64,000 bases of DNA from contig NZ_JAVDYB010000001.1 in the NCBI RefSeq assembly GCF_031458235.1, forward strand, positions 6,062,001 through 6,126,000, written 5' to 3'. The notes under the pieces are model-generated. The model did not search any database. It was not told the origin of the DNA and worked only from the letters and a program-made list of their open reading frames with translations. Source of the DNA: Catenuloplanes atrovinosus. GTDB lineage: Bacteria; Actinomycetota; Actinomycetes; Mycobacteriales; Micromonosporaceae. Each line of letters opens with the position of its first letter. Within the stretch, counting starts at the first letter, position 1. Shown in pieces: positions 21,890 to 63,204 of the stretch. The position numbers and the translations under genes are program-made.

Positions 21890-21899
21890 GATCTTGTTT

Positions 21900-21967
21900 C
21901 CCGCTTCCGGCGTGGTGGCGATCCGCATGCTCCCGCGGGCACCGGTCGTCGCTGGCGCTCCTCCCTG
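21900..21967 (+). repeat. Dispersed 3'-end repeat, copy A
   Basis: Begins CCCGCTTCCGGCGTG 10 nt after the stop of the upstream plus-strand gene. The last 45 nt (21923-21967) are identical to copy D at 62827-62871. It contains three short palindromes in a row: GCATGC, CCCGCGGG and ACCGGT. Confidence 0.85.
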
Positions 21968-22049
21968 CCGGTCCCGCGGGCGGCCGGTGCACCACCCACG
22001 CCGCGGCCTCCGTTCCGGCGGGAACACCACCTGGTGGCGAGCGTTCCGC

Positions 22050-22079
22050 CCACCGCCGCCGGACCGGCTTGCCGGCGGT
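22050..22079. repeat. Hairpin between repeat copies A and A-prime
   Basis: CACCGCCG and CGGCGGTG at its two ends can pair. It lies in the 204-bp interior separating two inverted copies of the dispersed repeat. No gene is visible in 21890-22302. Confidence 0.55.
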
Positions 22080-22171
22080 GTGATTCCGCGCGCCACGCAA
22101 GCCGACCCGCCACGATCGCCGCGTGATCTCCCCGGCCACGCCGGAACCGGCTCCGACGCCGCGAGCGGAGC

Positions 22172-22248
22172 GGAGCGCCAGCGGAGTCGTAGCCCGCGGC
22201 GAGGTTTGCCCGCGGGAGCATGCGGAACCGGGTCACGCCGGAAGCGGG
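22172..22248 (-). repeat. Dispersed repeat, inverted copy A-prime
   Basis: Read on the minus strand it runs CCCGCTTCCGGCGTG, a variable 12 nt, then CGCATGCTCCCGCGGGC, and ends near CGCTGGCGCTCC. It is the inverted partner of copy A and lies 54 nt after the stop of the minus-strand gene ending at 22303. Confidence 0.8.
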
Positions 22249-22302
22249 AAAATCGGGGTCCGGGGGTGGCACAGCGCCCGCGGAAGCGGGAGGGAAGGGC
22301 CG

Positions 22303-22554
22303 CTAGTTGTGGTTCGGTGGGACGTCGGGGATGAGGACCTCGCCGTAGGAGGGGTTGTTGGAGGCCGCGAGCGCCAGCAGGGCGTGCACGTGGGCGGCCG
22401 CGATGTGGTTGGCGTTGGCCTGGAGGTGGGCGGGGTTGCCCTCGTCGCCGGGCTTGGCCTGGGTCACCCACGCGGTTCGGTCGGCCTCGTAGCCGGCGCG
22501 GCCCAGCAGCTTCTCGGCCACGCGGTAGTGTTCGTCGCCCGTCATGGGAACCAT
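22303..22554 (-). CDS. Small conserved hypothetical protein
   Basis: 83 residues from the ATG at 22554 (GGGGAC-type ribosome site); an ATG three codons later is possible, while the longer frame to 22599 overlaps the degV stop. Sequence features: DEHYRVAEKLLGRAGYEADR, then a helix rich in Ala/His (ANANHIAAAHVHALLALA). Soluble and acidic. I do not recognise a characterised family. Downstream of degV by 41 nt, probably the last gene of that unit. Confidence 0.6.
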   Translation of the reverse strand: MVPMTGDEHYRVAEKLLGRAGYEADRTAWVTQAKPGDEGNPAHLQANANHIAAAHVHALLALAASNNPSYGEVLIPDVPPNHN

Positions 22555-22595
22555 GCTCACGTCCCCGGGTTGCAGATGGCGGCGAATTCCGCAAA

Positions 22596-23417
22596 TCACC
22601 GCCGGTGCATCACGGTGCAGATGGCGCCGGGGCCGAGGTGGGCGCCGACCACCGCGCCGATCTCGGTGACGTGTCTCTCGCGCAGGCGGGGGCCGAGCCG
22701 GGCGGCGATGCGGGACAGCAGTTCGGCGGCCCGGTCGGGCGCGGCCAGGTGGTGCACGGCCAGGTCCGCGTCGCCGTCGCCGGCGGCGTCCACGGTCAGG
22801 TCGGCGAGCCGGGCCAGCGCGCGCCCGGCCGTGCGCACCTTGTCCCGCACCACGATGGCGCCGTCCGAGACGCGCAGGATGGGCTTGACCGACAGCGCGG
22901 TGCCGACCAGCGCGGACGCTGCCCCGATCCGCCCGCCGCGGCGCAAAAAGTCGAGCGTGTCCACGTAGAACAGCGAGGTGGTGCGCTCGACCGACGTCTG
23001 CGCGGCCTTGGCGGCCTCGTCGAGGTCCGCGCAGCCGGCGGCGGCGAGCGCGGCGAAGCCGGTGGCCATGCCGGCCGACCGGGAGTCGATCACGCGGACC
23101 GCGTCGCCGAACGGCGCGGCGGCCAACTGGGCGGCCTCGACCGTGCCGGAGAGCCGGGCGGAGAGGTGCACGGAGACGACGCCGGTGGCGCCGCCGTCCA
23201 GCAGCCGGCGGTACGCCTCCGCGAAGCGCTCCGGCGCCGGCCGGGAGGTGGTGACCGGGACTCGCCGGTCGCGCAGCATCCGGGCCAGCTCGTCCGGCGG
23301 CAAACCGGGCACTTCGGGCAGCTCACGGTCGCCGACCACGACGTGCAACGGCACGACCGTGAGCCCGTCCGTGTCCGGCAGGTACGCCGTGGAGTCCGTG
23401 ACGACCGCGACTGACAT
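22596..23417 (-). CDS. DegV-family fatty-acid-binding protein
   Basis: 273 residues from ATG 23417, which lies 7 nt after a TACCGT -10 box; the GTG three codons upstream falls inside that box and is rejected. Signature blocks: VAVVTDSTAYLP, TSRPAPERFAEAYRRLLD (TSQPS-type), SVHLSARLSGT and VIDSRSAGMATGF. DegV/FakB proteins bind fatty acids and in Firmicutes present them to FakA; no FakA is in the window. In actinobacteria the gene commonly sits near comEA and rsfS, as here. Confidence 0.93.
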   Translation of the reverse strand: MSVAVVTDSTAYLPDTDGLTVVPLHVVVGDRELPEVPGLPPDELARMLRDRRVPVTTSRPAPERFAEAYRRLLDGGATGVVSVHLSARLSGTVEAAQLAAAPFGDAVRVIDSRSAGMATGFAALAAAGCADLDEAAKAAQTSVERTTSLFYVDTLDFLRRGGRIGAASALVGTALSVKPILRVSDGAIVVRDKVRTAGRALARLADLTVDAAGDGDADLAVHHLAAPDRAAELLSRIAARLGPRLRERHVTEIGAVVGAHLGPGAICTVMHRR

Positions 23418-23424
23418 GCCGGGC

Positions 23425-23430
23425 ACGGTA
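23425..23430 (-). promoter_or_regulatory. -10 box for leaderless degV mRNA
   Basis: TACCGT on the minus strand with 7 nt to the ATG at 23417, identical in box and spacing to the one before the DUF4870 gene (5063). Confidence 0.5.
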
Positions 23431-23445
23431 ACGCATGCGGGCCGA

Positions 23446-23928
23446 TCAGGCCGGTTTCACGGACTCCACCTGGAGCGGCGTGCCCTGCTGGCAGGTGCTC
23501 ATCAGGTCCTGGGCGAGCGTGCCGGTGACGGTCACCCGGGCCCCGACCCGGGCCATCGTCTGGTCGCCGCCGATCAGCAGGTACGACGCGCGGCCGTCCG
23601 AGATCAGCCGGCAGCCGGGCTCGACGCCGGCGGTCACCTCGCCGGTCACGGTGATCTCCAGCGGCTTGCCCGACTTGCCGGTCATATCCGGCGGCGTCTC
23701 GATCGGCAGCCCCGGCTCGGCCGGCCCACCGGGCACCGCCGAGGGTCCGGAGTCCGCGGCGCTGGGCGAGACCGAGGCCGCGGGTGAGACCGAGACCGCG
23801 GGTGAGACCGAGACCGCGGGCGAGGCCGACGGCGCCCCGGACTCGGTCGACGACGGGGAGGACGCGCATGCCGCCACCGAGAGCAGGGCGGCGGCCGCGA
23901 CGAGAAGGGAGAACCGGCGCATGGTCAT
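23446..23928 (-). CDS. Lipoprotein with Ser/Pro/Val repeat linker
   Basis: 160 residues. A signal sequence ends in the lipobox LSVAAC (Cys about 21), so the mature protein is lipid-anchored outside the membrane. The linker repeats VSVSPA/ASVSPS several times, then a compact domain from about 88 (LEITVTGEVTAGVEPGC ... YLLIGGDQTMARVGARVTVT) looks like a small beta-barrel of OB type. Two Cys in the mature domain may form a disulphide. Function unknown. Lies between the phosphatase and degV genes. Confidence 0.7.
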   Translation of the reverse strand: MTMRRFSLLVAAAALLSVAACASSPSSTESGAPSASPAVSVSPAVSVSPAASVSPSAADSGPSAVPGGPAEPGLPIETPPDMTGKSGKPLEITVTGEVTAGVEPGCRLISDGRASYLLIGGDQTMARVGARVTVTGTLAQDLMSTCQQGTPLQVESVKPA

Positions 23929-23965
23929 GATGAGTGGGACGTTACCGGCCCGCGCCGGGTTCCGC

Positions 23966-24595
23966 TCAGACCGGCGCGGGGATCGCCTTCTCCGGCCACG
24001 GCCCCACGTTGTGCGCGCGCAACTGCCAGCCCCGGTTCGGCGTGTCGACCAGCTCGGTCCAGTGACAGTTCTGCAGCGGGCGGATCGCCGACATCACGTC
24101 CGACGGCCAGCCCAGCACGTCACCGAAGCCCTGCCGCGCGGCGCCGCCGTGCGTGGCGACCACGACGACCTCACCGGGGTGCCGCTCGGCGATCTCGCGT
24201 AGCGACTCGCCGACCCGCTTGCCGACGTCGTCGTTGCGCTCGACCTCGGCGCCGACGTCCGGATCGCCGCCGCGCCACCGCGCGAACGCCTCCGGGTGGG
24301 CCTCGGCGATCTCCGGGTCGGTCAGGCCCTGGAACAGCCCGTAGTGCCGCTCCCGCAGTCGCGGGTCCTCGGTCACGGGCAGTTTCACCAGCGTGGCCAG
24401 CGCGTCCGCGGTGTGCCGGGCGCGCAGCAGATCGCTGGAGTAGATCGCGGACGGCTCCAGACCGGCGATGAGTCGCGCGGCGGTGGCGGCCTGCGAACGG
24501 CCGAGATCGTTCAGCGGCACGTCGGTCTGCCCCTGGACGCGGCCCGCCGCGTTCCAGTCGGTGTTGCCGTGCCGCCAGATGATCAGTCTGGTCAC
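23966..24595 (-). CDS. Histidine phosphatase (phosphoglycerate mutase-like) family protein
   Basis: 209 residues from GTG 24595, which overlaps the rsfS stop by 4 nt. Catalytic motif IIWRHGNTDWN (RHG, phospho-His) near the N-terminus, IYSSDLLRARHTADAL, the acid Glu in RERHYGLFQG and the second His in VVATHGGAARQGF. Broad-specificity phosphatase type; the actinobacterial gene next to rsfS is often annotated as a glucosyl-3-phosphoglycerate phosphatase, which I cannot confirm. Confidence 0.88.
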   Translation of the reverse strand: MTRLIIWRHGNTDWNAAGRVQGQTDVPLNDLGRSQAATAARLIAGLEPSAIYSSDLLRARHTADALATLVKLPVTEDPRLRERHYGLFQGLTDPEIAEAHPEAFARWRGGDPDVGAEVERNDDVGKRVGESLREIAERHPGEVVVVATHGGAARQGFGDVLGWPSDVMSAIRPLQNCHWTELVDTPNRGWQLRAHNVGPWPEKAIPAPV

Positions 24596-25011
24596 GCCGC
24601 GGAACCCGCGCCCGCCTCGGCGTCGACCAGGTCGCGGTCGACGAACGGGACGATCGGGCAGTCCTTCCACAGGCGGTCGAGCGCGTAGAACTCGCGCTCC
24701 TCGGAGTGCTGGACGTGCACGATGATGTCGTTGAAGTCCAGCAGGACCCAACGACCGGATCGTTCACCCTCCTTGCGGACCGGCTTCGCCTTCTCCGGCA
24801 GCTTGAGCAGCTCCTCCTCGATCGCGTCCACGATCGCGAGCACCTGCCGCTCGTTCGGCGCGGAGGCGATCACGAAGGCGTCGGTGATGACGAGCTGGTC
24901 GCCGACGTCGATGACGACGACGTCCTCGGCCTTCTTGTCGGCGGCGGCTTGAGCGGCGGTCAGGGCCAGCTCGAGGGCGCGCTCGGGTACCGTCACCCGG
25001 GCTCCTTCCAT
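24592..25011 (-). CDS. rsfS: Ribosomal silencing factor RsfS
   Basis: 139 residues. The Iojap/RsfS fold shows KAEDVVVIDVGDQLVITDAF, SAPNERQVLAIVDAIEE, GRWVLLDFNDIIVHVQ and EEREFYALDRLWKD. RsfS binds L14 on the 50S subunit and blocks subunit joining during starvation. The N-terminal few residues before VTVPERALEL may not be translated (an alternative GTG lies there). It follows nadD by about 87 nt, the usual neighbour. Confidence 0.95.
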   Translation of the reverse strand: MEGARVTVPERALELALTAAQAAADKKAEDVVVIDVGDQLVITDAFVIASAPNERQVLAIVDAIEEELLKLPEKAKPVRKEGERSGRWVLLDFNDIIVHVQHSEEREFYALDRLWKDCPIVPFVDRDLVDAEAGAGSAA

Positions 25012-25098
25012 GGGTACAGCAACAACCGTTCCAGGGTCTCACAACCGAGGGTCGATCGTCTCCTCACTTCATCCCCAGATCGGACAGAGGGGGACAAA

Positions 25099-25695
25099 CT
25101 ACCCAGCGTACAGGCCTCGTTTGGCGATGTACTGCACCACACCGTCCGGGACCAGGTACCAGACCGGCTTGCCGGCCACCACGCGCGCGCGGCAGGCGGT
25201 CGACGAGATCGCCATCGCCGGCACCTCGACCAGGCTGACCGCGTCCTCCGGCAGGTGCTCGTTCGACAGCTCGAACCCCGGTCGGGTGACGCCGACGAAC
25301 CGGGCCAGCGCGAACATCCGCTCCGCGTCCTTCCAGGAGAGCATCTTCGCCACCGCGTCCGCGCCGGTGATGAAGAACAGCTCCGCCTCCGGCCCGTAGA
25401 TCGCACGCAGGTCACGCAGCGTGTCGACGGTGTAGGTCGGACCGGGCCGGTCGATGTCGACGCGGCTGACCGTGAAGCGCGGGTTGGACGCGGTCGCGAT
25501 CACGGTCATCAGGTAGCGGTCCTCGGCCGGGGTGACCGCCTGCCGCCCCTTCTGCCAGGGCTGCCCGGTCGGGACGAAGACCACCTCGTCCAGCCCGTAC
25601 CGGTCCGCGACCTCGCTGGCCGCGACCAGGTGACCGTTGTGGATCGGGTCGAACGTGCCGCCCATGATGCCGATCCGCCGCCCAGGTTCCGCCAC
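25099..25695 (-). CDS. nadD: Nicotinate-nucleotide adenylyltransferase
   Basis: 198 residues. Nucleotidyltransferase motif [15 protein letters not shown] and the C-terminal ISSTACR (ISSTxxR) are both intact. NadD joins ATP and nicotinate mononucleotide into deamido-NAD in NAD synthesis. First gene of a nadD-rsfS-phosphatase run in the order typical of actinobacteria. Confidence 0.96.
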
Positions 25696-25760
25696 TGAAT
25701 GATCTTCCCTCGCGACACGCCGTCCGGCAAACCGTCCAGGACCTTCGAGATCAAAGGCAG

Positions 25761-25789
25761 CGAGGGTACGGACGGCGTCCGCACCCTCG
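25761..25789 (-). terminator. Hairpin after pepN
   Basis: CGAGGGT pairs with ACCCTCG and CGGAC with GTCCG around a GGC loop, with one mismatch. It lies 18 nt after the pepN stop; a short CTTTG follows on the minus strand. Confidence 0.65.
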
Positions 25790-25806
25790 TCGCCGGAAAT
25801 CCTTCG

Positions 25807-28320
<2,514 letters not shown>

Positions 28321-28455
28321 CGGACCATCCTCCCCGCTCCGGCCCCGGCGGCAACTCCGGGTAACCTGTATCCCGCGATGTGACGTGGCGCACGCGGGCC
28401 CGGTCACATCCGTCGAGCACCGATCCCCCGCAATCCCAGAACCCAGGGAGACCTC

Positions 28456-28683
28456 ATGACCACGCCTCACCCCAAGGGCGACTTCGACCTCTCCCGCGCG
28501 GTGTGGCAGTCGGCCGGGCCGGGCGAGGGCGGCGACGGAAGCTCCGTCGAGGTCGCCTTCGTCGACGACCTGATCGGCATGCGCAACGGCGCCGACCCGG
28601 ACGGTCCCGTCCTGGTGTTCACCCAGGCCGAGTGGGACGCGTTCGTCGAGGGCGCCAAGGACGGCGAGTTCGACCTGGAGTGA
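28456..28683 (+). CDS. DUF397 protein
   Basis: 75 residues with the DUF397 pattern: SSVEVAFVDDLIGMRNGADP then GPVLVFTQAEWDAFVEGAKD. GGGAG ribosome site 5 nt before the ATG. Such small proteins usually pair with an XRE-type helix-turn-helix regulator gene (BldB-like or Wsp systems in Streptomyces development); no such partner is adjacent, so this is an orphan copy. Confidence 0.88.
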   Translation: MTTPHPKGDFDLSRAVWQSAGPGEGGDGSSVEVAFVDDLIGMRNGADPDGPVLVFTQAEWDAFVEGAKDGEFDLE

Positions 28684-28698
28684 CCCGGCCCGGGCCGC

Positions 28699-29358
28699 TC
28701 AGGCGATCCCGCAGGTCGCGCCGTTGACGGTGCACAGCCGGGGCGGCGCGTCCTCACCCGTGCGGTTGAACTGCAGCCGCAGCGAGACGGACGCGCCCGC
28801 GCTCAGCGGCACGGTGCTGATGAACGTGTAGAGCGCGCCGTCCCGGCTCATCGTCGCCTGCGGCGCGGACTCCACCCAGAACGTGTGCAGCTCGCCCACG
28901 TTGTCCTCGAACTCGATCTGCAGCGACCAGTGCCGTACCCCCGTGGTGGGGTTGGTTATCAGCACCTCGGCGATGAACGAGTCGCCGTAGGAGTTCAGCA
29001 CGCGATAGGTGCCGGAGGCGTCGGTCAGTTGCCGGCCGGGCGCCTCCGTGCCCGCGATCAGTGAGGTCTCGCCCACGCCGCTCGGCGTCGGGACGCCGAG
29101 ACCCGGCACCCGGGACAGCTCCGGCGAGCCCGGGCCCGGGTCGGACGGCGTGACCGGCTCATCGGCGCCGGACGGCGTGGCGGCCTGCTGCGCGGCGTCG
29201 AACGGCACCAGCGTCAGCGCGGCCACCAGCAGCCCGGTCACCACCACGACCACGCCCAGGACCGGCACCCACGGCACCGACCGGACCCGACCGACCAGCG
29301 CCGTCCGCCGCCCACCGTGCCTCGCCGGCATGCGCTCCCCATCCACGTGTTCCGTCAC
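28699..29358 (-). CDS. Membrane-anchored CBM2-like protein
   Basis: 219 residues. A cytoplasmic basic stretch, one membrane helix (VPWVPVLGVVVVVTGLLVAAL), a Pro/Ser/Gly linker at about 60-115 and a C-terminal beta domain resembling a bacterial CBM2: YRVLNSYGDSFIAEVLITN, VRHWSLQIEF, and SVSLRLQFNRTG, closing with two Cys (LCTVNGATCGIA) that could form a disulphide. CBM2 aromatic binding residues are only partly kept, so cellulose binding is uncertain. GTG start with a TACCCT box 9 nt upstream. Convergent with the DUF397 gene, 15 nt apart. Confidence 0.65.
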   Translation of the reverse strand: MTEHVDGERMPARHGGRRTALVGRVRSVPWVPVLGVVVVVTGLLVAALTLVPFDAAQQAATPSGADEPVTPSDPGPGSPELSRVPGLGVPTPSGVGETSLIAGTEAPGRQLTDASGTYRVLNSYGDSFIAEVLITNPTTGVRHWSLQIEFEDNVGELHTFWVESAPQATMSRDGALYTFISTVPLSAGASVSLRLQFNRTGEDAPPRLCTVNGATCGIA

Positions 29359-29409
29359 GACCGAGTGAGGGTAGCCGGACGGGAGCCCGGATGAACATGG
29401 CGCGTCCCG

Positions 29410-29424
29410 GATCGAGCCTCGATC
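29410..29424. repeat. 15-bp perfect palindrome in a gene gap
   Basis: GATCGAG-C-CTCGATC. It lies between the stop of the gene at 29447 and the start at 29358, where it could act as an operator for the downstream gene or as a short hairpin. Confidence 0.5.
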
Positions 29425-29446
29425 GTGGACGGTCGCCGGCGCGTGC

Positions 29447-29980
29447 CTATGGCCGCGCCTCGATCAGGTCGAGCAGCTCGGGCAGCCCGTCCACGCCCCG
29501 CCCGCAGCGGCGCAGCCGGAGCACCAGCGTGGCCGCGGTCAGCACCGGAGGACCGTCCGGCAGGTCCGGGTCGAGCCGCTCGCGTGCCCACGCCTCGACG
29601 TCGTCCCAGCTGAAGAACCGTTCCCGGCCCGCGGGCCGCATCGGCATCGGGGACGGCGCGCCCGGCTCCCCCAGCGTGCCGGTCAGCCAGGTGCGGAACC
29701 ACTCGGCGGGCCGCCCCAGCCGGGCCGCCGCCTCCGGGACCGTGACCTGGTCGCGCGGCTCCACCCGGATCGGCCGCAGCCCGACCCGCTCCAGGTCGTG
29801 CGCGGCCGAGACGATCGCGGTGGCGAGCCGCGGCGCCGACCGGTCGAACCACACCACGCCCACCTGCTCCTCCGGCGCGACCTCGACCGCGGGCGCGTCC
29901 GGCAGGCCGACCAGCGCGACCGCCTGCGCCTCGGTGGGCGGCGTGTCCACCACCATGCGGAACTGGAACACCGGCATCAT
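29447..29980 (-). CDS. Hypothetical protein with helix-turn-helix-like segment
   Basis: 177 residues from ATG 29980, whose ATGATGA overlaps the upstream stop by 4 nt. The first 90 residues look like a small alpha/beta domain (MMPVFQFRMVVDTPPTEAQA, VVWFDRSAPRLATAI). Residues about 100-150 contain DQVTVPEAAARLGRPAEWF and RERFFSWDDVEAWARE, resembling excisionase/MerR-like winged helix elements that choose DNA or partner sites. No characterised homologue recognised. Forms an operon with the gene at 29977. Confidence 0.6.
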   Translation of the reverse strand: MMPVFQFRMVVDTPPTEAQAVALVGLPDAPAVEVAPEEQVGVVWFDRSAPRLATAIVSAAHDLERVGLRPIRVEPRDQVTVPEAAARLGRPAEWFRTWLTGTLGEPGAPSPMPMRPAGRERFFSWDDVEAWARERLDPDLPDGPPVLTAATLVLRLRRCGRGVDGLPELLDLIEARP

Positions 29981-30237
29981 CGGCCGCTCCCGCCCCGCCG
30001 GCCCGCACGCGCCCGGTGCGTGACGTGGTTGTCCAGGAAGATCATGAGCCGGGTGCCGTGCCGCGCCGGATCGTCCGCCCGGACCGGGACCGAGATCCGC
30101 CGGGCACCGGTCGCACACTCGACCCACCCCCAGAGCGGTCCCTGCCCGGCCCGGATCGTGACCAGCCCGGCCCGCCGGCACGCGGCCAGCGCGGCCTCGA
30201 TGTCGGGGATGGGATGAACAACCGTGACGTTCACCAT
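29977..30237 (-). CDS. Small hypothetical protein
   Basis: 86 residues from ATG 30237, with a strong GGAGGG ribosome site 6 nt before it. Sequence: MVNVTVVHPIPDIEAALAAC, then GLVTIRAGQGPLWGWVEC, and a basic tail (RARAGRRGGSGR). No family recognised. Translationally coupled to the gene at 29447, so the two products probably work together. Confidence 0.6.
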   Translation of the reverse strand: MVNVTVVHPIPDIEAALAACRRAGLVTIRAGQGPLWGWVECATGARRISVPVRADDPARHGTRLMIFLDNHVTHRARAGRRGGSGR

Positions 30238-30532
30238 GTGTCTCCCTCCGGCGGGCGACGCGCCCGCCCGGTAGCCGATGAGCCCGACCGCACCGCGCGG
30301 GTCCGGCCGTACCGGACGCGACCCTCGCCCCCGGCACGCACCACCTTCCACCCGCCACCGCCCCTCCCGGAGGAGCCACCGACAGGGGCCGGCACACCAC
30401 ACCACCGCTGGCCCCCCTTTTCTGGCCCCTCCCCGCCGGCGGCCGGCACGGACGGCACCGGCGGGCGGCACCCGCGACGGCCGGCACCGCGGGGCCGGCC
30501 CGAGCGGGCCGGACCGGTCGGCGCGGAGCGGG
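30238..30532. other. C-rich intergenic stretch
   Basis: Almost 300 bp with a marked C excess on the plus strand and several GC-rich inverted segments. I see no gene or promoter in it; it must hold the promoter for the 30237 gene on the minus strand. Confidence 0.4.
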
Positions 30533-30934
30533 TCAGAGCGCGTCGTCGAGCAGGATCTCGCGCAGGTCGGCGGGGGTCACCAGGTAGACGCCGAGCACGC
30601 GCACGCGCGCCGCCCGGCACACCTCGTAGGTGGCGTGGAACCAGGCCCGGTCGGAGGCGCTCACCGCGCCGGAACCGGGCCGGGTCAGCACCATCAGCAC
30701 GCCCCCGCCGGGCGGCTCGCCGGCGAGCGTGGCCGCGAACGCGGCGACCGTCCCACGCGGGCCGTCACCGTCCGCGAACGGCGGTGGCGCGTCGACCGGG
30801 CAGTGCACGCGCACGCGGTTGTCGCGGTCGCAGAGCACGAAACGCACTCCGTATCGCGCCCGGTCGGCACGGGTGAGCACCCGGGTGAGGTGCTCGTCGA
30901 TCGCCGCCGGGGTGTCCAGGCGCGTCTCGTCCAT
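30533..30934 (-). CDS. Hypothetical protein
   Basis: 133 residues from ATG 30934; the open frame runs further back but crosses the neighbouring GNAT gene in antisense. Features: AIDEHLTRVLTRADRARYG, RFVLCDRDNRVRVHCPVD, and a C-terminal strand-helix part (VLMVLTRPGSGAVSASDRAW, GVYLVTPADLREIL). The layout resembles small actinobacterial proteins of unknown role with an alpha/beta fold. No signal peptide. Confidence 0.6.
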   Translation of the reverse strand: MDETRLDTPAAIDEHLTRVLTRADRARYGVRFVLCDRDNRVRVHCPVDAPPPFADGDGPRGTVAAFAATLAGEPPGGGVLMVLTRPGSGAVSASDRAWFHATYEVCRAARVRVLGVYLVTPADLREILLDDAL

Positions 30935-41230: not shown

Positions 41231-41297
41231 CCCGCTTCCGGCGTGCCCACTCCCGTCCGCTCCCGCGGGCACCGGTCGTCGCCGGCGCTCCTCCCTG
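41231..41297 (+). repeat. Dispersed repeat, copy B
   Basis: Starts CCCGCTTCCGGCGTG 10 nt after the methyltransferase stop and ends GCGCTCCTCCCTG. It differs from copy A mainly in the middle (the GCATGC palindrome is lost) and continues into CAGATCCG, as copy D does. Confidence 0.82.
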
Positions 41298-54242: not shown

Positions 54243-54287
54243 GGTGCCCGCTGCGAGCATGCGGACCGCAACCCCGCCGGAAGCGGG
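54243..54287 (-). repeat. Dispersed repeat, copy C
   Basis: Read on the minus strand: CCCGCTTCCGGCG, then GGGTTGCGGTCCGCATGC, TCGCAGCGGGCACC. It begins 11 nt after the stop of the PlsC gene (54299) and lies between two convergent genes. Confidence 0.8.
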
Positions 54288-54298: not shown

Positions 54299-54967
54299 CT
54301 AAGAGGTCTTCGGCGGTGCGTAGTTCGGGACGTACTCCTGGCCGGTCAGCTTCTGGATCTCGGCCATGACCTCGTCCGTTATCGCGCGCAGGCCGAGCGT
54401 GTCGGTGGCGCGGCCGGTGAAGTCCATCGGCTTGCCGAAGCGGATCACCGCGCCGCTCGGCCGGAACTTCGGCAGTCGCTGGCCGATCGGCTGCATCCGG
54501 TCGGTGCCGAGCACGCCCACCGGGATGACCGGCACGCCGGCCATGGTGGCGAGGCGGGCGACGCCGGTGCGCCCCTTGTAGAGGCGGCCGTCCGGGGAGC
54601 GGGTGCCCTCCGGGTAGACGACCACCTGGCCGCCGCTCTGGAGCACCGGGATGGCCGCGTCGAACGCGGCGAGCGCGGCGCGTCCGCCGGCCCGCTCGAC
54701 CGGGATCGCGCCGAGCGCCTGGAGCAGGTGCTTGACGAAGAGGCCGCGCGGGCCGGTGCCCTTGAAGTACTCCGACTTGGCCCAGAACGCGAGGTGGCGC
54801 GGGACGACGACCGCGGAGAGCACCTCGTCCGCGACGGAGAGGTGGTTGCTGGCGAAGATGAGGCCGCCGGAGTCCGGGATGTTCTCGCGGCCCTCGACCT
54901 CCGGCTGCCAGATCAGGTTCAGGAGCGGACCGACCGTGACCTTCCCGAACGAATAGAGCGGTGGCAA
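54299..54967 (-). CDS. 1-acyl-sn-glycerol-3-phosphate acyltransferase-like (PlsC family)
   Basis: 222 residues from TTG 54967, chosen because AGGAGG lies 8 nt upstream. Acyltransferase motif NHLSVADEVLSA (HX4D), then VERAGGRAALAAFD, the phosphate-binding YPEGTRSPDGRLYKG and the PVIPVGVLGTD block. It transfers an acyl chain to lysophosphatidic acid in phospholipid synthesis, or to a related glycolipid. The in-frame start at 55087 lacks a ribosome site. Downstream of ileS by about 125 nt. Confidence 0.85.
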   Translation of the reverse strand: MPPLYSFGKVTVGPLLNLIWQPEVEGRENIPDSGGLIFASNHLSVADEVLSAVVVPRHLAFWAKSEYFKGTGPRGLFVKHLLQALGAIPVERAGGRAALAAFDAAIPVLQSGGQVVVYPEGTRSPDGRLYKGRTGVARLATMAGVPVIPVGVLGTDRMQPIGQRLPKFRPSGAVIRFGKPMDFTGRATDTLGLRAITDEVMAEIQKLTGQEYVPNYAPPKTS

Positions 54968-55033
54968 CCCTCGACCCTCCTGCGACGTGAGCCCCGGAGC
55001 CGGGGCGATCACACGGTAGCCGACGGATGCCGA

Positions 55034-55079
55034 AAAGAAAGCACCCCGTACCGCCTGGTGAGGGCGGCACGGGGTGCTA
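55034..55079 (-). terminator. Rho-independent terminator of ileS
   Basis: AGCACCCCGT and CCGCC pair with GGCGG and ACGGGGTGCT (15 pairs, one A.C mismatch, 7-nt loop), followed on the minus strand by TTTCTTTT. It ends the ileS unit 13 nt after its stop. Confidence 0.9.
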
Positions 55080-55091
55080 AGGAACACACGG

Positions 55092-58000
55092 TCAGCGGAC
55101 GACCTGGACGACGACCTCCTCGCCGTCGCCGACCTCGCCGGTGAACCCGGTGACGCCGGCCGCGAAGGCCACGTCGTCGGCCAGCACCTCGCCGGCCACG
55201 AAGTCGCGGTACGCCCGGACCGCGGCGACCACCTCGTCGGACGCGGAGAGGGTGACCGTGATCCGGTCGGAGACGTTCAGGTCCGCGTCGCGGCGGGCCT
55301 GCTGGACCACCCGCACCACGTCCCGGGCCAGGCCCTCCGCGGCCAGCTCCGGCGTGACCGCGGTGTCGAGCACGACCACGCCGCCGTTCGGCAGCGTCGC
55401 CGAGTTCTCCACGTCCACCGCGACCAGTTTCAGCTCGTACTCGCCGTCCTGGAGGGTGACGCCGGCCGCGACCGGCGCGCCGTCCACCAACTGCCAGTCG
55501 CCGCTCTTGACCGCCTTGATGACCTGCTGGACCGCGCCGCCGACGCGCGGGCCGAGCGCGCGCGGCACGACCGTGAGCACCTGCCGGCAGTAGTCCTCCA
55601 CCTGCGTGGTGAACACGACCTCCTTCACGTTGACCTCGTCCGCGATGAGCGCGGTGAAGTCGCCGAGCGAGTCCGCGTCCGGCGTGGCCACGGTCAGCTT
55701 CGGCAGCGGCAGCCGGACGCGCAGCGCGCGGGCCTTGCGCAGCGACAGCGCGCCGGAGCAGACGTCCCGGACCGAGTCCATGGCCGCGACCAGCGCGTGG
55801 TCGGCTGGGAACTCCTCCGCGGACGGCCAGTCGGTCAGGTGCACCGAGCGCCCGCCGGTCAGGCCGCGCCAGATCTCCTCGCTGGTCAGCGGCGCGAGCG
55901 GCGCCACCACCCGGGCGAGCGTCTCCAGCACGGTGTAGAGCGTGTCGAACGCGTCGCGGTCGCCCTCCCAGAACCGGTCGCGGGACCGGCGCACGTACCA
56001 GTTGGTCAGCGCGTCCAGGTAGTTGCGGACGGTCGCGCAGGCGCCGGAGATGTCGTAGTCGTCCAGCTGCCGCTGCACGGCCGTGACCAGCTCACCGGTC
56101 TTGGCCAGGACGTAGCGGTCGAGGACGTTCGCCGAGTCGGTCCTCCGCCTCGCCTCGTAGCCCTCCGCGTTCGCGTAGAGCGAGAAGAAGTACCAGACGT
56201 TCCACAGCGGCAGCAGCACCTGGCGGACCGCGTCGCGGATCGCGACCTCGGTGACCGCCATGTCGCCGCCGCGCAGCACCGGCGAGGACATCAGCATCCA
56301 CCGCATCGCGTCCGACCCGTGCGAGTCGAACACCTTGTAGACGTCCGGGTAGTTCCGCAGGCTCTTGGACATCTTGCGCCCGTCCTCGCCGAGCAGGATG
56401 CCGTGGCTGAGGCAGTTGCGGAACGCCGGCCGGTCGAACAGCGCGGTGGCCAGCACGTGCATGGTGTAGAACCAGCCGCGGGTCTGGCCGATGTACTCCA
56501 CGATGAAGTCGCCCGGGTAGTGGTGGTCGAACCACTCCGCGTTCTCGAACGGGTAGTGCACCTGCGCGAACGGCATCGAGCCGGACTCGAACCAGCAGTC
56601 CAGCACCTCCGGCACCCGGCGCATGGTGGACTTCCCGGTCGGGTCGTCCGGGTTGGGCCGGGTCAGCTCGTCCACGAACGGCCGGTGCAGGTCGGTGACG
56701 CGCACGCCGAAGTCGCGCTCCAGCTCCTCGTAGGAGCCGTAGACGTCGACCCGCGGGTACTGCGGGTCGTCCGACTTCCAGACCGGGATCGGCGAGCCCC
56801 AGAACCGGTTGCGGCTGATCGACCAGTCGCGCGCGTTCGCCAGCCACTTGCCGAACGAGCCGTCCTTGATGTGCGACGGCGTCCAGTTGATCTGCTGGTT
56901 CAGCTCGACCATCCGGTCCCGGAACGTGGAGACCGCCACGAACCAGGACGAGACCGCCTTGTAGACCAGCGGGGTCTCGCACCGCCAGCAGTGCGGGTAC
57001 GAGTGCGTGTACGTGTCCTGCCGCAGCAGCACGCCCCGGTCCTTGAGCAGCCGGATGACCGGCTTGTTCACGTCGAAGACCTGCTCGCCCCGGAAGTCCG
57101 GGACCAGCGCGGTGAACCGGGTGTGGTCGTCCACGGTCACGATGGTCGGGATGCCGGCCGCGTTGCAGGCGTTCTGGTCGTCCTCGCCGAACGCGGGCGC
57201 CATGTGCACCACGCCGGTGCCGTCCTCGGTGGTGACGAAGTCCGCGCCGAGCACCTGGAACGCGTTCGGCCCGGCCTGCTCGACCAGATAGTCGAACAGC
57301 GGCGTGTACCGCTTCCCGACCAGCTCGGCGCCCCGCACGGTGCCGACCTGCTCGAAGCCCTCCAGTTCCCTGGCGTACGCCGCGACCCGCGACTCGCCGA
57401 GCAGATAGCGCGACCCGTCCTTCTCCAGCACCGCGTACGTGATGTCCGGGCCGACCGCGAGCGCCAGGTTCGACGGCAGCGTCCACGGCGTGGTGGTCCA
57501 GACGCCGATCTTCTCGCCGGAGTCGAGCTGGAACCAGACCGTGACGGACGGGTCCTGCCGGTCCCGGTAGACGTCGTCCATCCGGGTCTCGGTGTTCGAC
57601 AGCGGCGTCTCACAGCGCCAGCAGTACGCCAGCACCCGGAAGCCCTCGTAGACCAGGCCCTTGTCGTGCAGCGTCTTGAAGGCCCACATCACGGACTCCA
57701 TGTAGTCCGGGTCGAGGGTCTTGTAGTCGTTCTCGAAATCCACCCAGCGGGCCTGGCGCGTGACGTACCGCTCCCACTCGTTGGTGTACTTCAGCACCGA
57801 CGTGCGGCAGGCGTCGTTGAACGTCTGCACGCCCAGGTCCAGGATCTCGGCCTTGGTGGAGATGCCGAGCTGCTTCTCCGCCTCGACCTCCGCGGGCAGG
57901 CCGTGGGTGTCCCAGCCGAACCGCCGCTCCACCCGCCGGCCACGCATCGTCTGGTAGCGCGGGACCAGGTCCTTGACGTAGCCGGTGAAGAGGTGGCCGT

Positions 58001-58199
58001 AGTGCGGGAGGCCGTTGGCGAACGGTGGGCCGTCGTAGAAGACGTATTCGTTCTTGCCGTCATCCCCGGCCGGCCTGGCCTCGACGGAGGCCTCGAAGGT
58101 CTTGTCGGACGCCCAGTAGTCCAGGACGCCGCGCTCGACCGCCGGCAGGTCCGGGCTGGCCGGCACGCCGGGCGTCGCAGCGTTCTTGGGGTACGCCAT
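55092..58199 (-). CDS. ileS: Isoleucyl-tRNA synthetase
   Basis: 1035 residues from ATG 58199. HIGH-type motif [16 protein letters not shown] motif [15 protein letters not shown], the CP1 editing domain and two CWRCETPL zinc-like motifs are present, and a long C-terminal region ends with the [15 protein letters not shown] tail. This is the eukaryote-like IleS2 layout, associated in other bacteria with mupirocin insensitivity (not proven here). It charges tRNA-Ile. Preceded by a T-box leader and followed by a strong terminator. Confidence 0.97.
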
Positions 58200-58202
58200 C
58201 GG

Positions 58203-58420
58203 TGGTCACTTCCTACTCGCAGCCTGCTCACTCAAGGTCTGCGAGGACGAGCCAAGGCCCGCGGTACCACCCCGCTTGACGACCGAGGATCCGGTCGCCC
58301 GCTCATTGCCGGCTGTGACGGGCCGTCCCGTCCGGTTCTACTCGGCCCCCAGAGGGGGCTTTTCTTCCGGAGGCTCCCCGGTGATGGCCGGATCGACGCC
58401 TTGCTGCCCTCCAGAGTACC
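58203..58420 (-). ncRNA. T-box riboswitch leader of ileS
   Basis: The T-box core GGGGTGGTACCGCGG is at 58259-58273 on the minus strand, which pairs with the tRNA acceptor end. An ATC specifier triplet is at 58383-58385 (GGCCATCACCGGGGAGCC), reading tRNA-Ile. No T-run is visible; instead CTCGCAG (58239-58245 on the minus strand) can pair with CTGCGAG (58216-58222) just before the AGGAAG ribosome site, so control is probably at translation initiation, as in actinobacterial ileS leaders. Uncharged tRNA-Ile would raise ileS expression. Boundaries approximate. Confidence 0.85.
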
Positions 58421-58501
58421 CACCCTCCCCCGCCGGCCTCATCCGAGTTACCGGTGGTTCGGCCGGACCCGAATTCGTTTCTCGCCGTGCCCCGCACGCT
58501 C

Positions 58502-58507
58502 TAGGTT
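58502..58507 (+). promoter_or_regulatory. -10 box for leaderless ABC ATPase mRNA
   Basis: TAGGTT with 7 nt to the ATG at 58515; no ribosome site upstream. Confidence 0.5.
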
Positions 58508-58514
58508 CGGGCGC

Positions 58515-59510
58515 ATGGAGAACGCGATCGAGGCTGAGGGGCTGCGGCGTACCTACCGCAGCCGCACGGGGTGGCTGAGACCGAGGACCACCGAGGTGCA
58601 CGCGGTGCGCGGCGTGGACCTGACGGTGGGCCGGGGCGAGCTGTTCGGCCTGCTCGGGCCGAACGGGGCCGGCAAGACCACCACCATCAAGATGCTGAAC
58701 ACGCTGCTCATCCCGTCCTCCGGTACCGCCCGGATCTGCGGTTTCGACGTCGAGCGGCAGACCCGTGAGGTGCGCAGGCGGATCGGGTACGTGTTCGGCG
58801 GCGACCGGGGCCTCTACGAGCGCCTCTCCGCGCTGGACAACCTGCGGTACTTCGCGGAGCTGTACGGCGTGCCCGCGCGCGAGCAAAAGCGCCGGATCGC
58901 CGAGCTGCTGGAGCTGGTCAAGCTGACCGGCCGGGAGCGGGAGCGGGTGGAGGGGTATTCGCGCGGCATGCGCCAGCGGCTGCACATCGCGCGCGGTCTG
59001 CTCCACTCCCCCGAGGTGATCTTTCTGGACGAGCCGTCGATCGGCGTGGACCCGGTGGCCGCCCGCGAGCTGCGCGCCACCGTGGCGAACCTGGCCGCGA
59101 CCGGCACCACCGTGCTGCTGACCACGCACTACATGGCCGAGGCGGACGAGCTCTGCGACCGGATCGCGGTGATCTCGGACGGGGAGATCCAGGCGCTGGG
59201 CACGCCCGCGGAGCTGCGCCACCGGGCGGACGGGCGGCGCGTGCTGGAGATCGAGGCCTACGGCGTACCCGCGGACGCTCTTGAAGATCTTCAAAACCTC
59301 CCGGGGGTACGCGAGGCGGCGGTCGAGGAGCGCGGCCAGGTGCAGGTGCTGACCGTGCAGTCGGACGCGGACGTGGACGTGCAGCAGGACGTGCTGCGCC
59401 GGCTGGACGGGGTGCGCCTGGGCCGGGTCACGTCCCGCGAGCCCACGCTGGAGGACGCGTACGTGGCGATCATCGCGGCGGCCGGCAAGCGGGAGCCGGT
59501 GATCGTGTGA
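58515..59510 (+). CDS. ABC-2 exporter ATP-binding protein
   Basis: 331 residues from ATG 58515; the enormous upstream frame is antisense of ileS. Walker A GPNGAGKTTT, signature YSRGMRQRLHIARG (a variant of LSGGQ), Walker B VIFLDEPSIGVD, H-loop LTTHYMAEADEL. C-terminal extension (VLEIEAYGVPADALEDLQNL, then SREPTLEDAYVAI) is typical of the DrrA/NatA-type exporters. Powers export together with the two permeases that follow; the substrate is unknown. Coupled to the next gene by a 4-nt overlap. Confidence 0.93.
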   Translation: MENAIEAEGLRRTYRSRTGWLRPRTTEVHAVRGVDLTVGRGELFGLLGPNGAGKTTTIKMLNTLLIPSSGTARICGFDVERQTREVRRRIGYVFGGDRGLYERLSALDNLRYFAELYGVPAREQKRRIAELLELVKLTGRERERVEGYSRGMRQRLHIARGLLHSPEVIFLDEPSIGVDPVAARELRATVANLAATGTTVLLTTHYMAEADELCDRIAVISDGEIQALGTPAELRHRADGRRVLEIEAYGVPADALEDLQNLPGVREAAVEERGQVQVLTVQSDADVDVQQDVLRRLDGVRLGRVTSREPTLEDAYVAIIAAAGKREPVIV

Positions 59511-60277
59511 GAAGCCTGCGCATGCTGGTGCTCGGGATGCTGTTCCACATGAAGCACGTGTCCCGGTCGCCGTTCGACCTCGCGGTGTTCGTGGTGGTGC
59601 CGGTGGTGCAGGCCACGCTCGCGGTGTACCTGTTCCGCGCGTCCGCGGAGCCGCAGAAGCTGCTTCAGGCCGCGGTCGGCGCCGGGATGATGGGCGTCTG
59701 GTCGTCCGTGCTGTTCGGCGCCGGCGGCGCGATCCAGTCCCAGCGCTGGCAGGGCACGCTGGAGATGCTGATGCTGGCGCCCCGGCGGCCCGTCATGATC
59801 TTCCTGCCGATCACGCTGGCCCAGGGCGCGATCGGCAGCTACGCGCTGCTGGCCACGCTCGTCTGGGCCCGCGTGCTCTACGGCATCCGGCTGGACTTCG
59901 CGCGCCCGTGGGCGTTCCTGGTCACCGCGCCGGTCACGGTGCTGTCGCTGGGCGCGTTCGGCATCCTGCTGGCGTCGCTGTTCGTGCTGCTGCGCCACGC
60001 GAACGCACTGCAGAACGCGCTGGAGTACCCGGTCTGGCTGCTCTCCGGCATGCTGCTGCCGATCTCGTCGCTGCCCGCGTGGACCGGCCCGCTCGCGGCC
60101 GTGCTCCCGACCACCTGGGGTGCGCGGGCGATGCGCGAGGCGACCGCGGGCGGCGCGGTCTGGCCGTCGCTCGCCTGGTGCGCCGGGATCAGCGCGATCT
60201 GCCTCGCGCTCGGCGCACTGTCCCTGGTCCACGTGGAGCGGCGGGCCCGCGCGGCGGCCACGCTGGCGCTGGCATGA
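59507..60277 (+). CDS. ABC-2 type permease 1
   Basis: 256 residues; the GTG overlaps the ATPase stop by 4 nt. Six helices by hydrophobicity, opening with SPFDLAVFVVVPVVQATLAV, and the ABC-2 signature around LEYPVWLLSGMLLPISSLPA. It pairs with the second permease as a heterodimeric exporter channel. Confidence 0.88.
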   Translation: MRSLRMLVLGMLFHMKHVSRSPFDLAVFVVVPVVQATLAVYLFRASAEPQKLLQAAVGAGMMGVWSSVLFGAGGAIQSQRWQGTLEMLMLAPRRPVMIFLPITLAQGAIGSYALLATLVWARVLYGIRLDFARPWAFLVTAPVTVLSLGAFGILLASLFVLLRHANALQNALEYPVWLLSGMLLPISSLPAWTGPLAAVLPTTWGARAMREATAGGAVWPSLAWCAGISAICLALGALSLVHVERRARAAATLALA

Positions 60278-60339
60278 GCGAGCGAATCATCGGCTCAGCA
60301 CCGACCACAACGAAACCGCGGCGCGAAGGAGAGTCCGGC

Positions 60340-61128
60340 ATGAGGGGCACGCTCCGGCTGCTCGGGATGGGCAGCGTGATCGCGTACCGGGCGCTGTTCA
60401 ACTGGACGACGCCGCCGGTCTTCATCGGGTCGCTGCTGGTCGGGCCGCTCTTCCAGCTGATCTTCTTCGCCTACGTGGGCCGGCAGCTGTCGGTCGGCGA
60501 CGACCGGTTCTACATCGTCGGCAACGCGGTGCTGGCCGCCGCGTGGACGTGCGTGTTCGGCGGCACGATGGCGATCGGCAACGAGCGCCGCTTCGGCACG
60601 CTCGGCCACGTGCTGCTGTCCCCGCGCAGCCGCACGCTGATCTTCCTGGGCCGGGCCACGCCGTACGCGCTGAACGGCCTGTTCGTGGCCGCGGTGATCC
60701 TGGCCCTCGGCGCGGGCCTGCTCGGGCTGCACATCCCGGCGTCCGCGATCCCGCTGCTGGCGCTCTGCCTGGCCGCGGGCGCGGTGGCGTCCGCGTTCTT
60801 CGGGCTGACGCTGGGCGCGCTCGGGCTGCGGTTCCGCGACATCTGGGTGATCTCGAACGTGACGTCCGCGCTGATGGTGCTGCTCACCGGCGTGAACGTG
60901 CCGCTCGACCAGCTGCCGCCGGTCCTGCGCGCGATCGGGACGGTGCTGCCGATCACGCACTCGGCCGCGGCGGCCCGGGACGCGGCGGGCGGTGCGCCGA
61001 TCGCCGCGGTGGCGCCGGACCTGCTGATCGAGGCCGGCATCGCGCTCGCGTACGCCGCGCTCGCCGCCGTGCTGCTGCGGATCTTCGAGGCGGAGTCGCG
61101 GCGGCGCGCCTCACTGGACACGCTGTGA
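60340..61128 (+). CDS. ABC-2 type permease 2
   Basis: 262 residues from ATG 60340 (AAGGAG 8 nt upstream); ATG 60274, which overlaps the previous stop, would add 22 polar residues (MSERIIGSAPTTTKPRREGE...) and is the alternative. Helices include VFIGSLLVGPLFQLIFFAYV, LFVAAVILALGAGLLGLHIP and VTSALMVLLTGVNVPLDQLP. Ends directly at a 30-bp palindrome. Second half of the exporter channel. Confidence 0.85.
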   Translation: MRGTLRLLGMGSVIAYRALFNWTTPPVFIGSLLVGPLFQLIFFAYVGRQLSVGDDRFYIVGNAVLAAAWTCVFGGTMAIGNERRFGTLGHVLLSPRSRTLIFLGRATPYALNGLFVAAVILALGAGLLGLHIPASAIPLLALCLAAGAVASAFFGLTLGALGLRFRDIWVISNVTSALMVLLTGVNVPLDQLPPVLRAIGTVLPITHSAAAARDAAGGAPIAAVAPDLLIEAGIALAYAALAAVLLRIFEAESRRRASLDTL

Positions 61129-61158
61129 GAGCCGGGGCGCCGCGCGGCGCCCCGGCTC
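61129..61158. terminator. Perfect 30-bp palindrome between convergent genes
   Basis: GAGCCGGGGCGCCGC and its exact complement GCGGCGCCCCGGCTC with no spacer, starting at the base after the permease stop and ending 7 nt before the phoD stop. A bidirectional terminator without T-runs. Confidence 0.85.
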
Positions 61159-61165
61159 ACCTCGG

Positions 61166-62698
61166 TCACGGCTTCGGCAGCGTCCTGCGGAACAGCGACT
61201 TCCCGTCGATGTCGCGCAGGTCCACCGTGAACGCGCCGGTCCGCGCGTCGATGTTGACCTCGCCGAAGTGCTGGAACCCGGCGTACGGCGACGTGTTCGC
61301 GGCCGGCGGCGCGTTCACGAAGACCGCCTCCGGGCCGAACGTGCCGTCCAGCGCGTTCGGCCCGAACGCGCCCGCGTGCGCCGGGCCGGAGACGAACTCC
61401 CAGAACGGCGTGAAGTCCTGCACCGCGGCCCGCGCCGGGTCGTAGTGGTGCGCGGCCGTGTAGTGCACGTCCGCGGTCAGGAACACGATGCCGCTGACCT
61501 TCGCCCGGTGCGCCTCGCGGAGCACGGTGGCGAACTCCAGCTCGCGGCCGAGCGGCGCGCCCGGGTCGCCCTGGGCCACGCCCTCCTGAGCCGCCGCGCC
61601 GTCCGGCACGACCAGGCCGATCGGCAGGTCGTTGGCGATCACCTTCCAGGTGGCCCGGGACCGCTTGAGGCCGTCGATCAGCCACCGCCGCTGCGCCGCG
61701 CCGAGCAGGCCGCGGTTCGGGTCGGCGTAGGTGTTGCCGTCGTTGGGGTCCTTGAGCGTGCGCATGTCCAGCACGAACACGTCCAGCATCGGGCCGTACG
61801 ACAGCTTGCGGTAGATCGGGCCGGACAGGTCGGGCAGCGGCAGGTACTCGAAGTACGCCTGCCGGGAGCGGCGGGCCAGCACGTCCACCCGCTTCTCCGT
61901 GTACCGGGCGTCGTCCAGGATCTCGCCCGGGTACCAGTTGTTGGTGACCTCGTGGTCGTCCCACTGGTTGATCTGCGGCACCTCTGCCACGAACCGCCGG
62001 TACGGGTCGTCCAGCAGGTTGTAGGCGAACTGGCCGCGGTACTCGTCCAGCGTCTCGGCCACCTTGGACTTCGCCTCGGTCACCACGTTCGTCCACACGG
62101 TCCCGTCCGGCAGCGTCACGCTGGCGCTGATCGGGTTGTCCGCGTACACGGTGTCGCCGCTGTGCAGGAAGAAGTCGGGCCGGCGGTCGCGCATCGCGGA
62201 GAAGATCTTCATGCCGCCGAACGCCGGGTTGATGCCCCAGCCCTGACCGGCCACGTCACCGGTCCACACGAACCGGATGTCGTCGCGCCCGGTCGGCGCC
62301 GTGGTCAGCGAGCCGGTCAGCGGCGCGCTCGCCTGCCGGTCGCCCTCCACCCGCACCCGGTAGTAGACCTTGGAGCCGGACGGCAGGTCACGCAGCCGCA
62401 CCTTGCCGGTGAAGTCCGAGCCCGCGGTCAGCACCGGCCCGCGCAGCACCCGCGCGCCCCGGAAGTCCGGCCGCCGGCTGACCTCCACCAGCATCCGCCC
62501 GGCCCGGTCCGAGCGGGTCCAGACGATCGCGGAGTTCGCGGTCGCGTCGCCGCTCTGCACGCCGTGCGTCAGCACCGGCCGTCCGCCCGGGTGGAACGCG
62601 GGGGCCGCGCTCGCGCCGCCCGCCAGCAGTTGCCCGCCGATAAGTCCCGCACCCGCGCCGAACCCGGCCCGGATGAGTCCACGCCTGTCGATAGTCAT
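61166..62698 (-). CDS. phoD: Alkaline phosphatase D (PhoD family)
   Basis: 510 residues. The N-terminus is a Tat signal (MTIDRRGLIRAGFGAG then hydrophobic to SAAP). PhoD N domain at about 40-140, then the metallophosphatase domain with FLHSGDTVYAD, NQWDDHEVTNNWYPG and VFLTADVHYTAAHH that bind Fe/Ca. Secreted through Tat and acting on phosphodiesters and wall phosphates during phosphate limitation. I see no clear PHO box. Convergent with the ABC operon. Confidence 0.93.
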   Translation of the reverse strand: MTIDRRGLIRAGFGAGAGLIGGQLLAGGASAAPAFHPGGRPVLTHGVQSGDATANSAIVWTRSDRAGRMLVEVSRRPDFRGARVLRGPVLTAGSDFTGKVRLRDLPSGSKVYYRVRVEGDRQASAPLTGSLTTAPTGRDDIRFVWTGDVAGQGWGINPAFGGMKIFSAMRDRRPDFFLHSGDTVYADNPISASVTLPDGTVWTNVVTEAKSKVAETLDEYRGQFAYNLLDDPYRRFVAEVPQINQWDDHEVTNNWYPGEILDDARYTEKRVDVLARRSRQAYFEYLPLPDLSGPIYRKLSYGPMLDVFVLDMRTLKDPNDGNTYADPNRGLLGAAQRRWLIDGLKRSRATWKVIANDLPIGLVVPDGAAAQEGVAQGDPGAPLGRELEFATVLREAHRAKVSGIVFLTADVHYTAAHHYDPARAAVQDFTPFWEFVSGPAHAGAFGPNALDGTFGPEAVFVNAPPAANTSPYAGFQHFGEVNIDARTGAFTVDLRDIDGKSLFRRTLPKP

Positions 62699-62803
62699 GC
62701 ACGTGGTCTATCCGCCGAACCTTGCGCATCGTTGACCAACCGCGAAATCCCGCGCGAAACCCGCCGCAACCCGGGCAAGACCCGCTTCGCGGATATCGAT
62801 ATT

Positions 62804-62871
62804 CCCACTCCCGGCCTGCCCGGGTCCCGCATGCTCCCGCGGGCACCGGTCGTCGCTGGCGCTCCTCCCTG
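62804..62871 (+). repeat. Dispersed repeat, copy D
   Basis: CCCACTCCCGGCCTG, then CCGCATGCTCCCGCGGG and CGCTCCTCCCTG; 45 nt (62827-62871) identical to copy A. Unlike A-C it does not follow a gene's stop codon. Confidence 0.85.
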
Positions 62872-62946
62872 TCAGATCCGTGGCCGGTCGCGAGAAAACC
62901 CCGCCCGGGTTCTCGCCGAGGGGTTGCCGGACCCCGCGGATCTGAC
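62871..62946. repeat. Nested inverted repeats beside copy D
   Basis: GTCAGATCCG (62871-62880) and CGGATCTGAC (62937-62946) form a perfect 10-bp pair enclosing GCGAGAA / TTCTCGC (7 bp). This gives a two-tier hairpin. Confidence 0.6.
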
Positions 62947-63204
62947 GGGAAGCCCGGCCGCCGCAATGCCACTCAGCTTAAGTCGATCATGGCTTTGACT
63001 CGCGTCCTCGGCCGATGCCCGCCCGGCACCCGGGCCTCACGGCCAGGAGGCCGCATCACTCACCAGTGGACCACCCGGCGGTTCCGCGAGAACGGCACAC
63101 CGCCGCGCCGCGCATCCCCCGGCCGCGACAGCCACCGTCGATCTTGAGTACAGCCCGGCCCGGCCCGGGTGTCTCGCGGTGGGCGTCGGCGACTAAAGAT
63201 ACGT

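What the first reader, a model, noticed from the sequence alone, without database searches (positions are those of the whole stretch)
21890..62950. A dispersed 45-80 bp repeat that begins 10-11 nt after stop codons
Five copies (21900-21967 +, 22172-22248 -, 41231-41297 +, 54243-54287 -, 62804-62871 +) share CCCGCTTCCGGCGTG, a variable middle, CGCATGCTCCCGCGGGCACC and GCTGGCGCTCCTCCCTG. Copies A and D are identical over 45 nt although 41 kb apart. Copies A, B and C start 10, 10 and 11 nt after a stop codon, and always with the CCCGCTTCC end facing the gene; copy A-prime has the same orientation at 54 nt. Such fixed placement suggests a 3'-end function (terminator, mRNA-stability or end-processing signal) or a mobile repeat that inserts at gene ends. 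The three internal palindromes GCATGC, CCCGCGGG and ACCGGT are kept in A and D.
Basis: partly seen in the sequence, partly recalled or inferred. Interest (0 to 1): 0.72.

Follow-up and report, generated by a model that had tools for sequence, protein, structure and literature searches.

The report
Dispersed repeat hugging gene ends
A short non-coding repeat found about two hundred times in a soil bacterium sits mostly just after the ends of genes and mostly points the same way, and it is one branch of a wider family of such elements in related bacteria for which no description was found.

Summary
The core 20-mer occurs 203 times (<=2 mismatches; reversed-pattern control 0) in this 8.9 Mb Catenuloplanes genome. 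Among 251 distinct copies, the CCCGCTTCC end faces a gene's 3' end in 191 and a 5' end in 39 (15 in called genes, 6 at edges; background about 1:1); stop-to-repeat distance peaks at 5-19 nt. In convergent regions the head is the closer end in 37 of 40. Near-identical copies share an ~80 bp block with unrelated flanks, and sister species show empty sites, so the unit has dispersed. A covariance model finds relatives in 32 of 111 Micromonosporaceae genomes, 14 of 44 genera; in a 296-genome phylum sample only this genome matches. In another genus the element forms two stem-loops with compensatory changes. No RAYT, Rfam match or integron integrase was found; reverse transcriptase is missing from three of five genomes. 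Best reading: a new REP/ERIC-like non-autonomous repeat family, inserted or kept sense-oriented right after stop codons. A 3'-end function is plausible but not shown: four of five window copies fold no better than shuffles.

The parts
21897..21979 (+). copy A, type A unit (TTT|CCCGCTTCCGGCGTGG...GGTCCCGCGG), 10 nt after the stop of the ORF at 20720-21889; AT-rich leader at 21890-21899
22129..22253 (-). copy A-prime, type B unit (AAACC and a GTCGGAG stem module), head facing the stop (22303) of the convergent ORF 22303-22599
21890..22302 (.). 413 bp between the two convergent stops; from overlapping stops to 42 nt in four sister species
   Evidence: the orthologous gene of G002 maps to the same end
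   Evidence: G003 and G004 carry a copy at the same stop
62933..62965 (-). probable tail fragment of an inverted sixth copy, cut by a nested insert that begins at about 62966 (TGCCACTCAG)
   Evidence: by inspection only

Best explanation
The repeat is a non-coding, non-autonomous dispersed element of the REP/ERIC/BOX kind. Its unit in this genus is about 80 bp, with a sharp left end TT|CCCGC, an end near GGTCCCGCGG, and exchangeable inner modules (types A and B). It occupies about 200 (strict matches) to an extrapolated 440 places in the genome, mostly in sense orientation with its head just after a stop codon. The Catenuloplanes version is one branch of a family of elements across Micromonosporaceae. 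Shown: copy number, placement, orientation, dispersal, relatives in 14 genera, compensatory changes in one genus. Inferred: that it is moved in trans by an enzyme not identified here; that insertion or survival is confined to transcript 3' ends (target preference or selection, which I cannot separate); and that in the mRNA it forms a 3'-end structure that may affect termination, decay or ribosome release.
For: 203 core matches, control 0; 23 copies in 464 kb with profile models, about 440 per genome if that density holds. 191 of 230 classifiable copies face a gene 3' end against 993:961 for gene ends in general; tandem regions 26 sense to 5 antisense; convergent regions head closer in 37 of 40. 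In 262 alignments of copies at least 95% identical over at least 60 nt, 131 begin at -2 or -3 and 150 end at +76 to +79, and the flanks shown are unrelated. Empty sites in sister species at the window's A/A-prime locus. CM hits in 32 of 111 family genomes and 14 of 44 genera against 1 of 296, our own, in the phylum sample. In g45, 19 cells changed on both sides of a pair, 0 of 500 shuffles.
Against: No mobilising enzyme and no target-site duplication found. Most positions are shared: 7 of 11 loci whose own flanks were found have a copy in every relative compared, so movement is slow or old. The bias is weaker outside the own species' close kin: C. japonicus 48:20, Phytohabitans 11:4 and 21:5, other genera 26:9 with 14 matches inside called genes. 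Four of five window copies do not fold better than shuffles (z -0.40, -0.61, 0.15, -0.55; type B -1.78). In one search the number of pairs with a change on both sides (5) is reached by 131 of 500 shuffles; only the cell count, covariation score and percentage paired stand out. Copies at orthologous loci are not independent, so p-values are optimistic.
Confidence: 0.72

Rival explanations
1. It is primarily a functional 3'-end RNA element (terminator, decay barrier or ribosome-stalling hairpin) held in place by selection; dispersal is secondary, by duplication and gene conversion.
For: Orientation and distance to the stop; six convergent regions hold copies for both genes, heads out; compensatory changes in g45; shared positions between species. 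E. coli REPs within 15 nt of a stop are reported to stall ribosomes (PMC12306157, passages seen).
Against: At two loci sister species lack it and have overlapping stops, which leaves no room for a replacement between the genes; 41 of 323 eligible gene ends carry it within 60 nt; gene ends without it lie as far below shuffles (-4.1 kcal/mol, 120 sampled) as those with it (-3.2, 36); no T-tract terminator in the one region scanned.
Confidence: 0.2
2. Classical REP element mobilised by a RAYT (Y1 tyrosine transposase).
For: High-copy, extragenic, biased to positions after stops, some inverted pairs.
Against: PF01797 found in 0 of 5 Catenuloplanes genomes while the control rings in 5 of 14; no GTAG or CGTC tag at the unit ends by inspection.
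Confidence: 0.05
3. SINE-like retro-element: a structured RNA copied into gene ends by a reverse transcriptase.
For: RNA-like compensated structure in g45, sharp left end, sense orientation at 3' ends.
Against: RVT_1 has no match in G000, G002 and G004, which hold 160 or more 17-mer copies each; it is found only in G001 and G003.
Confidence: 0.03

Closest known systems
REP elements / BIMEs of enterobacteria and Pseudomonas with RAYT transposases
   Same: hundreds of extragenic copies, many close after stop codons, some inverted pairs, target of another mobile-looking element
   Different: unit about 80 bp here rather than 20-40; no GTAG/CGTC tag seen; no PF01797 in the genus; clear sense orientation to the upstream gene; actinobacterial
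ERIC, BOX, bcr and similar 100-200 bp structured interspersed repeats (recalled, not compared by any search)
   Same: comparable length, modular inner blocks, structure, no own protein
   Different: other phyla and sequences; anchoring to the stop codon
REP-targeting insertion sequences (PMC1525189, abstract read)
   Same: an insert with TGCCACTCAG ends sits in the repeat's ACCGGT palindrome at several G003 copies
   Different: whether the insert encodes a transposase was not searched

Membership tests
REP element with RAYT | RAYT (Y1_Tnp, PF01797) in the genome | tested here: not met
   0 of 5 genus genomes; control 5 of 14
REP element with RAYT | GTAG or CGTC tag at one end | tested here: not met
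   by inspection of copies and block ends
REP element with RAYT | high copy number and extragenic position | tested here: met
   203 matches; 15 of 251 copies in called genes
REP element with RAYT | the unit is a palindromic hairpin | tested here: inconclusive
   short internal palindromes only; folding not above shuffles in 4 of 5 window copies
MITE | terminal inverted repeats and target-site duplication | tested here: inconclusive
   none clear by inspection; no systematic test
MITE | an autonomous parent in the genome | not tested
   transposase families other than PF01797 were not searched
Intrinsic terminator | GC hairpin followed by a T tract | tested here: not met
   0 sites at 21500-22700, 0.4 expected in shuffles; one region only
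Known structured RNA (Rfam 15) | match to a covariance model | tested here: not met
   window: 0 at gathering; six loci at E<=1: one hit (E 0.71, below gathering) away from the repeat
Integron attC | integron integrase in the genome | tested here: not met
   TIGR02249 over cut-off in 0 of 5; weaker tyrosine-recombinase matches in 5 of 5; none of the 14 controls passes the cut-off either

The most novel reading that the evidence does not exclude
A family-wide class of mobile 3'-UTR modules: structured elements that enter or survive in transcripts at their ends, in sense, and equip genes with a portable mRNA 3' end, moved by a mechanism that is neither RAYT nor reverse transcriptase.
Probability: 0.2. 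Interest if true: 0.78.

Novelty: new variant of a known kind. Interest (0 to 1): 0.52.

Why it matters
To my recollection few interspersed repeats are described in high-GC actinomycetes, and their transcript ends are poorly understood (recalled, not searched). A repeat that marks stop codons in sense orientation at 41 of 323 eligible gene ends in the sampled regions of four species offers many natural test sites for how 3' ends are made, and a REP-like family without a RAYT reopens the question of how such repeats move.

Tried and rejected
RNAalifold on the mixed 40-sequence alignment gave three pairs and no covariation. The mutual-information scan of 251 heads was dominated by subfamily and alignment noise. 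A hairpin between the variable block and the core showed a small excess (mean stem 4.18 against 4.06, 0 of 500 shuffles reach it); I put it down to subfamilies and did not use it. A pairing of head with tail was only weakly suggested, not tested formally, and dropped. The head helix over genera is modest: 3 of 6 pairs with both-side changes (103 of 500 shuffles reach that), 9 such cells (4 of 500), score 15 of 500, percentage paired 26 of 500. The group called 'ph' was mis-sorted (it mixed genera) and is not used. The idea that inverted pairs flank a cargo gene was not followed. The G145 copy of L301 was looked for at the same gene in relatives: of 11 loci printed, 5 show a comparable stop with no element in the next 190 nt by eye; the others were on the wrong strand or unclear and say nothing. 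Counts stop at 49 per genome, and searches used stricter filters, so they are lower bounds. Papers: searches (19 papers, 15 listed; 0; 0; 0; 2; 70, 15 listed; 0) showed no title or abstract that describes this repeat; three papers were opened in part. The library is open-access only.

Full report
What was checked. The five copies are real and above chance. Only A (21900) and D (62804) carry all three blocks; A-prime is a different type and C is altered. The stop distances of 10, 10 and 11 nt are correct.

Copy number and host. CGCATGCTCCCGCGGGCACC occurs 96 times forward and 107 reverse at up to 2 mismatches in the 8.9 Mb chromosome, 0 for the reversed control. Five of five genomes of the genus carry 160 to 243 matches of a 17-mer at up to 1 mismatch; of the other 36 relatives one has a single match. 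G001, of the same genus, has the contig length of Catenuloplanes japonicus NRRL B-16061. Of 300 family genomes, 11 in 3 of 44 genera match the 19-mer at up to 1 mismatch.

Placement. The genes come from a home-made gene finder trained on these genomes. 82 profile hits in 1.66 Mb of four species give 40 convergent, 26 tandem-sense, 5 tandem-antisense and 4 divergent positions, and 7 overlap a called gene. For 251 distinct copies in the loci then held, 191 face a 3' end, 39 a 5' end, 15 lie in a called gene, 6 at a locus edge. By set: 64:10 in the syntenic stretches, 68:5 in other Catenuloplanes loci, 48:20 in C. japonicus contigs, 11:4 in Phytohabitans. Gene ends facing intergenic regions of at least 100 nt are 993:961; binomial p about 3e-24, optimistic because orthologous loci recur. 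80 of the 191 lie less than 25 nt after the stop, 66 of them at 5-19 nt. The gene finder misses some genes: the ORF before the copy at 41231 was not called. A later set with looser matching (L299-L380 without L319-L330) gives 26:9 in other genera, with 14 inside called genes and 2 at edges, 21:5 in Phytohabitans (8 inside, 1 edge) and 5:1 in Catenuloplanes (2 inside) (sum).

Orientation is a property of the head. In 40 convergent cases the head-to-stop median is 16 nt and the tail-to-other-stop median 251.5 nt; the head is closer in 37; 25 heads but 3 tails are within 25 nt. Of 8 regions with several copies 7 are heads-out; the eighth looks like one copy split by an insert.

Dispersal. Of 262 alignments between copies at least 95% identical over at least 60 nt, 131 begin at -2 or -3 (TT before CCCGC) and 150 end at +76 to +79; they include pairs from different species. 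In G145 (genus g45; Actinoplanes is my guess, no call names it) two loci share 120 identical bases. At the A/A-prime locus four sister species have from overlapping stops to 42 nt where this genome has 413 bp; in G003 both genes end in one CTAG. Of 11 loci of this genome whose own flanks were found in relatives, 7 have a copy in every relative compared, 3 in some, 1 in none. At the locus of copy D the relatives' copy points the other way, so it answers to the inverted fragment beside D, not to D. A decayed copy missed by the profiles is seen, so loss is part of the picture. Types A and B can occur at one locus in different species (G000:434770).

Family-wide relatives. G145 and other g45 genomes carry diverged versions with the same order of parts: AT-rich leader with GATCAAG motifs, head hairpin, core near GCTCCCGCG, a long second stem-loop, and a tail like TCCGCGGGTGGTCACC. 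A 60-position covariance model finds 32 of 111 family genomes in 14 of 44 genera and, of 296 genomes over the phylum, only this one. In 13 g45 sequences, one cut short at its 5' end, a four-helix structure has 92.8% of cells paired (shuffles 88.8%, 0 of 500) and 19 cells changed on both sides (0 of 500), all in the long helix; the number of such pairs, 5, is reached by 131 of 500. The structure was derived from 12 of these sequences, which favours it; slid controls reach at most 5 such cells.

Against an RNA role in this genus. The five window copies fold at z -0.40, -1.78, -0.61, 0.15 and -0.55. Gene ends with a copy lie 3.2 kcal/mol below mononucleotide shuffles, ends without one 4.1 (36 and 120 used). 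The first 12 nt after the stop are more AT-rich with a copy (46% against 31%); part of this is the unit's own T run.

Who moves it. No Y1 transposase, no integron integrase over cut-off, reverse transcriptase in two of five genomes only. Other transposases were not searched.

Verdict. A new REP/ERIC-like family with unusually strict placement; known in kind, not described in the papers searched. Of papers I saw passages of PMC12306157 and PMC3733652 and the abstract of PMC1525189.

Noticed in passing
window 62966; G003 stretches L284, L295, L297, L298: A second mobile-looking element with ends AATGCCACTCAG / GTGGCATT is nested in the repeat at its ACCGGT palindrome in G003 and lies beside a repeat fragment in the window; its coding capacity was not searched.
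   Followed up: partly
window 21886-22305 with its orthologue in G003; G000:364188 with its orthologue in G002: The state without the repeat at these two loci is a pair of convergent genes ending in one overlapping CTAG stop.
   Followed up: no
G003 and G004 intergenic regions shown (three loci): Other hairpins of about 50-60 nt or more occupy gene ends where this repeat stands in sister species.
   Followed up: no
G000 about 6205520-6205630: A 22-bp tandem repeat (CACGCTGCCGGCGTGCCGTGGC, about five units) in the same long intergenic region as a copy.
   Followed up: no
G003 genome: Nine reverse-transcriptase domain matches, three with the same score, against none in G000, G002 and G004.
   Followed up: no
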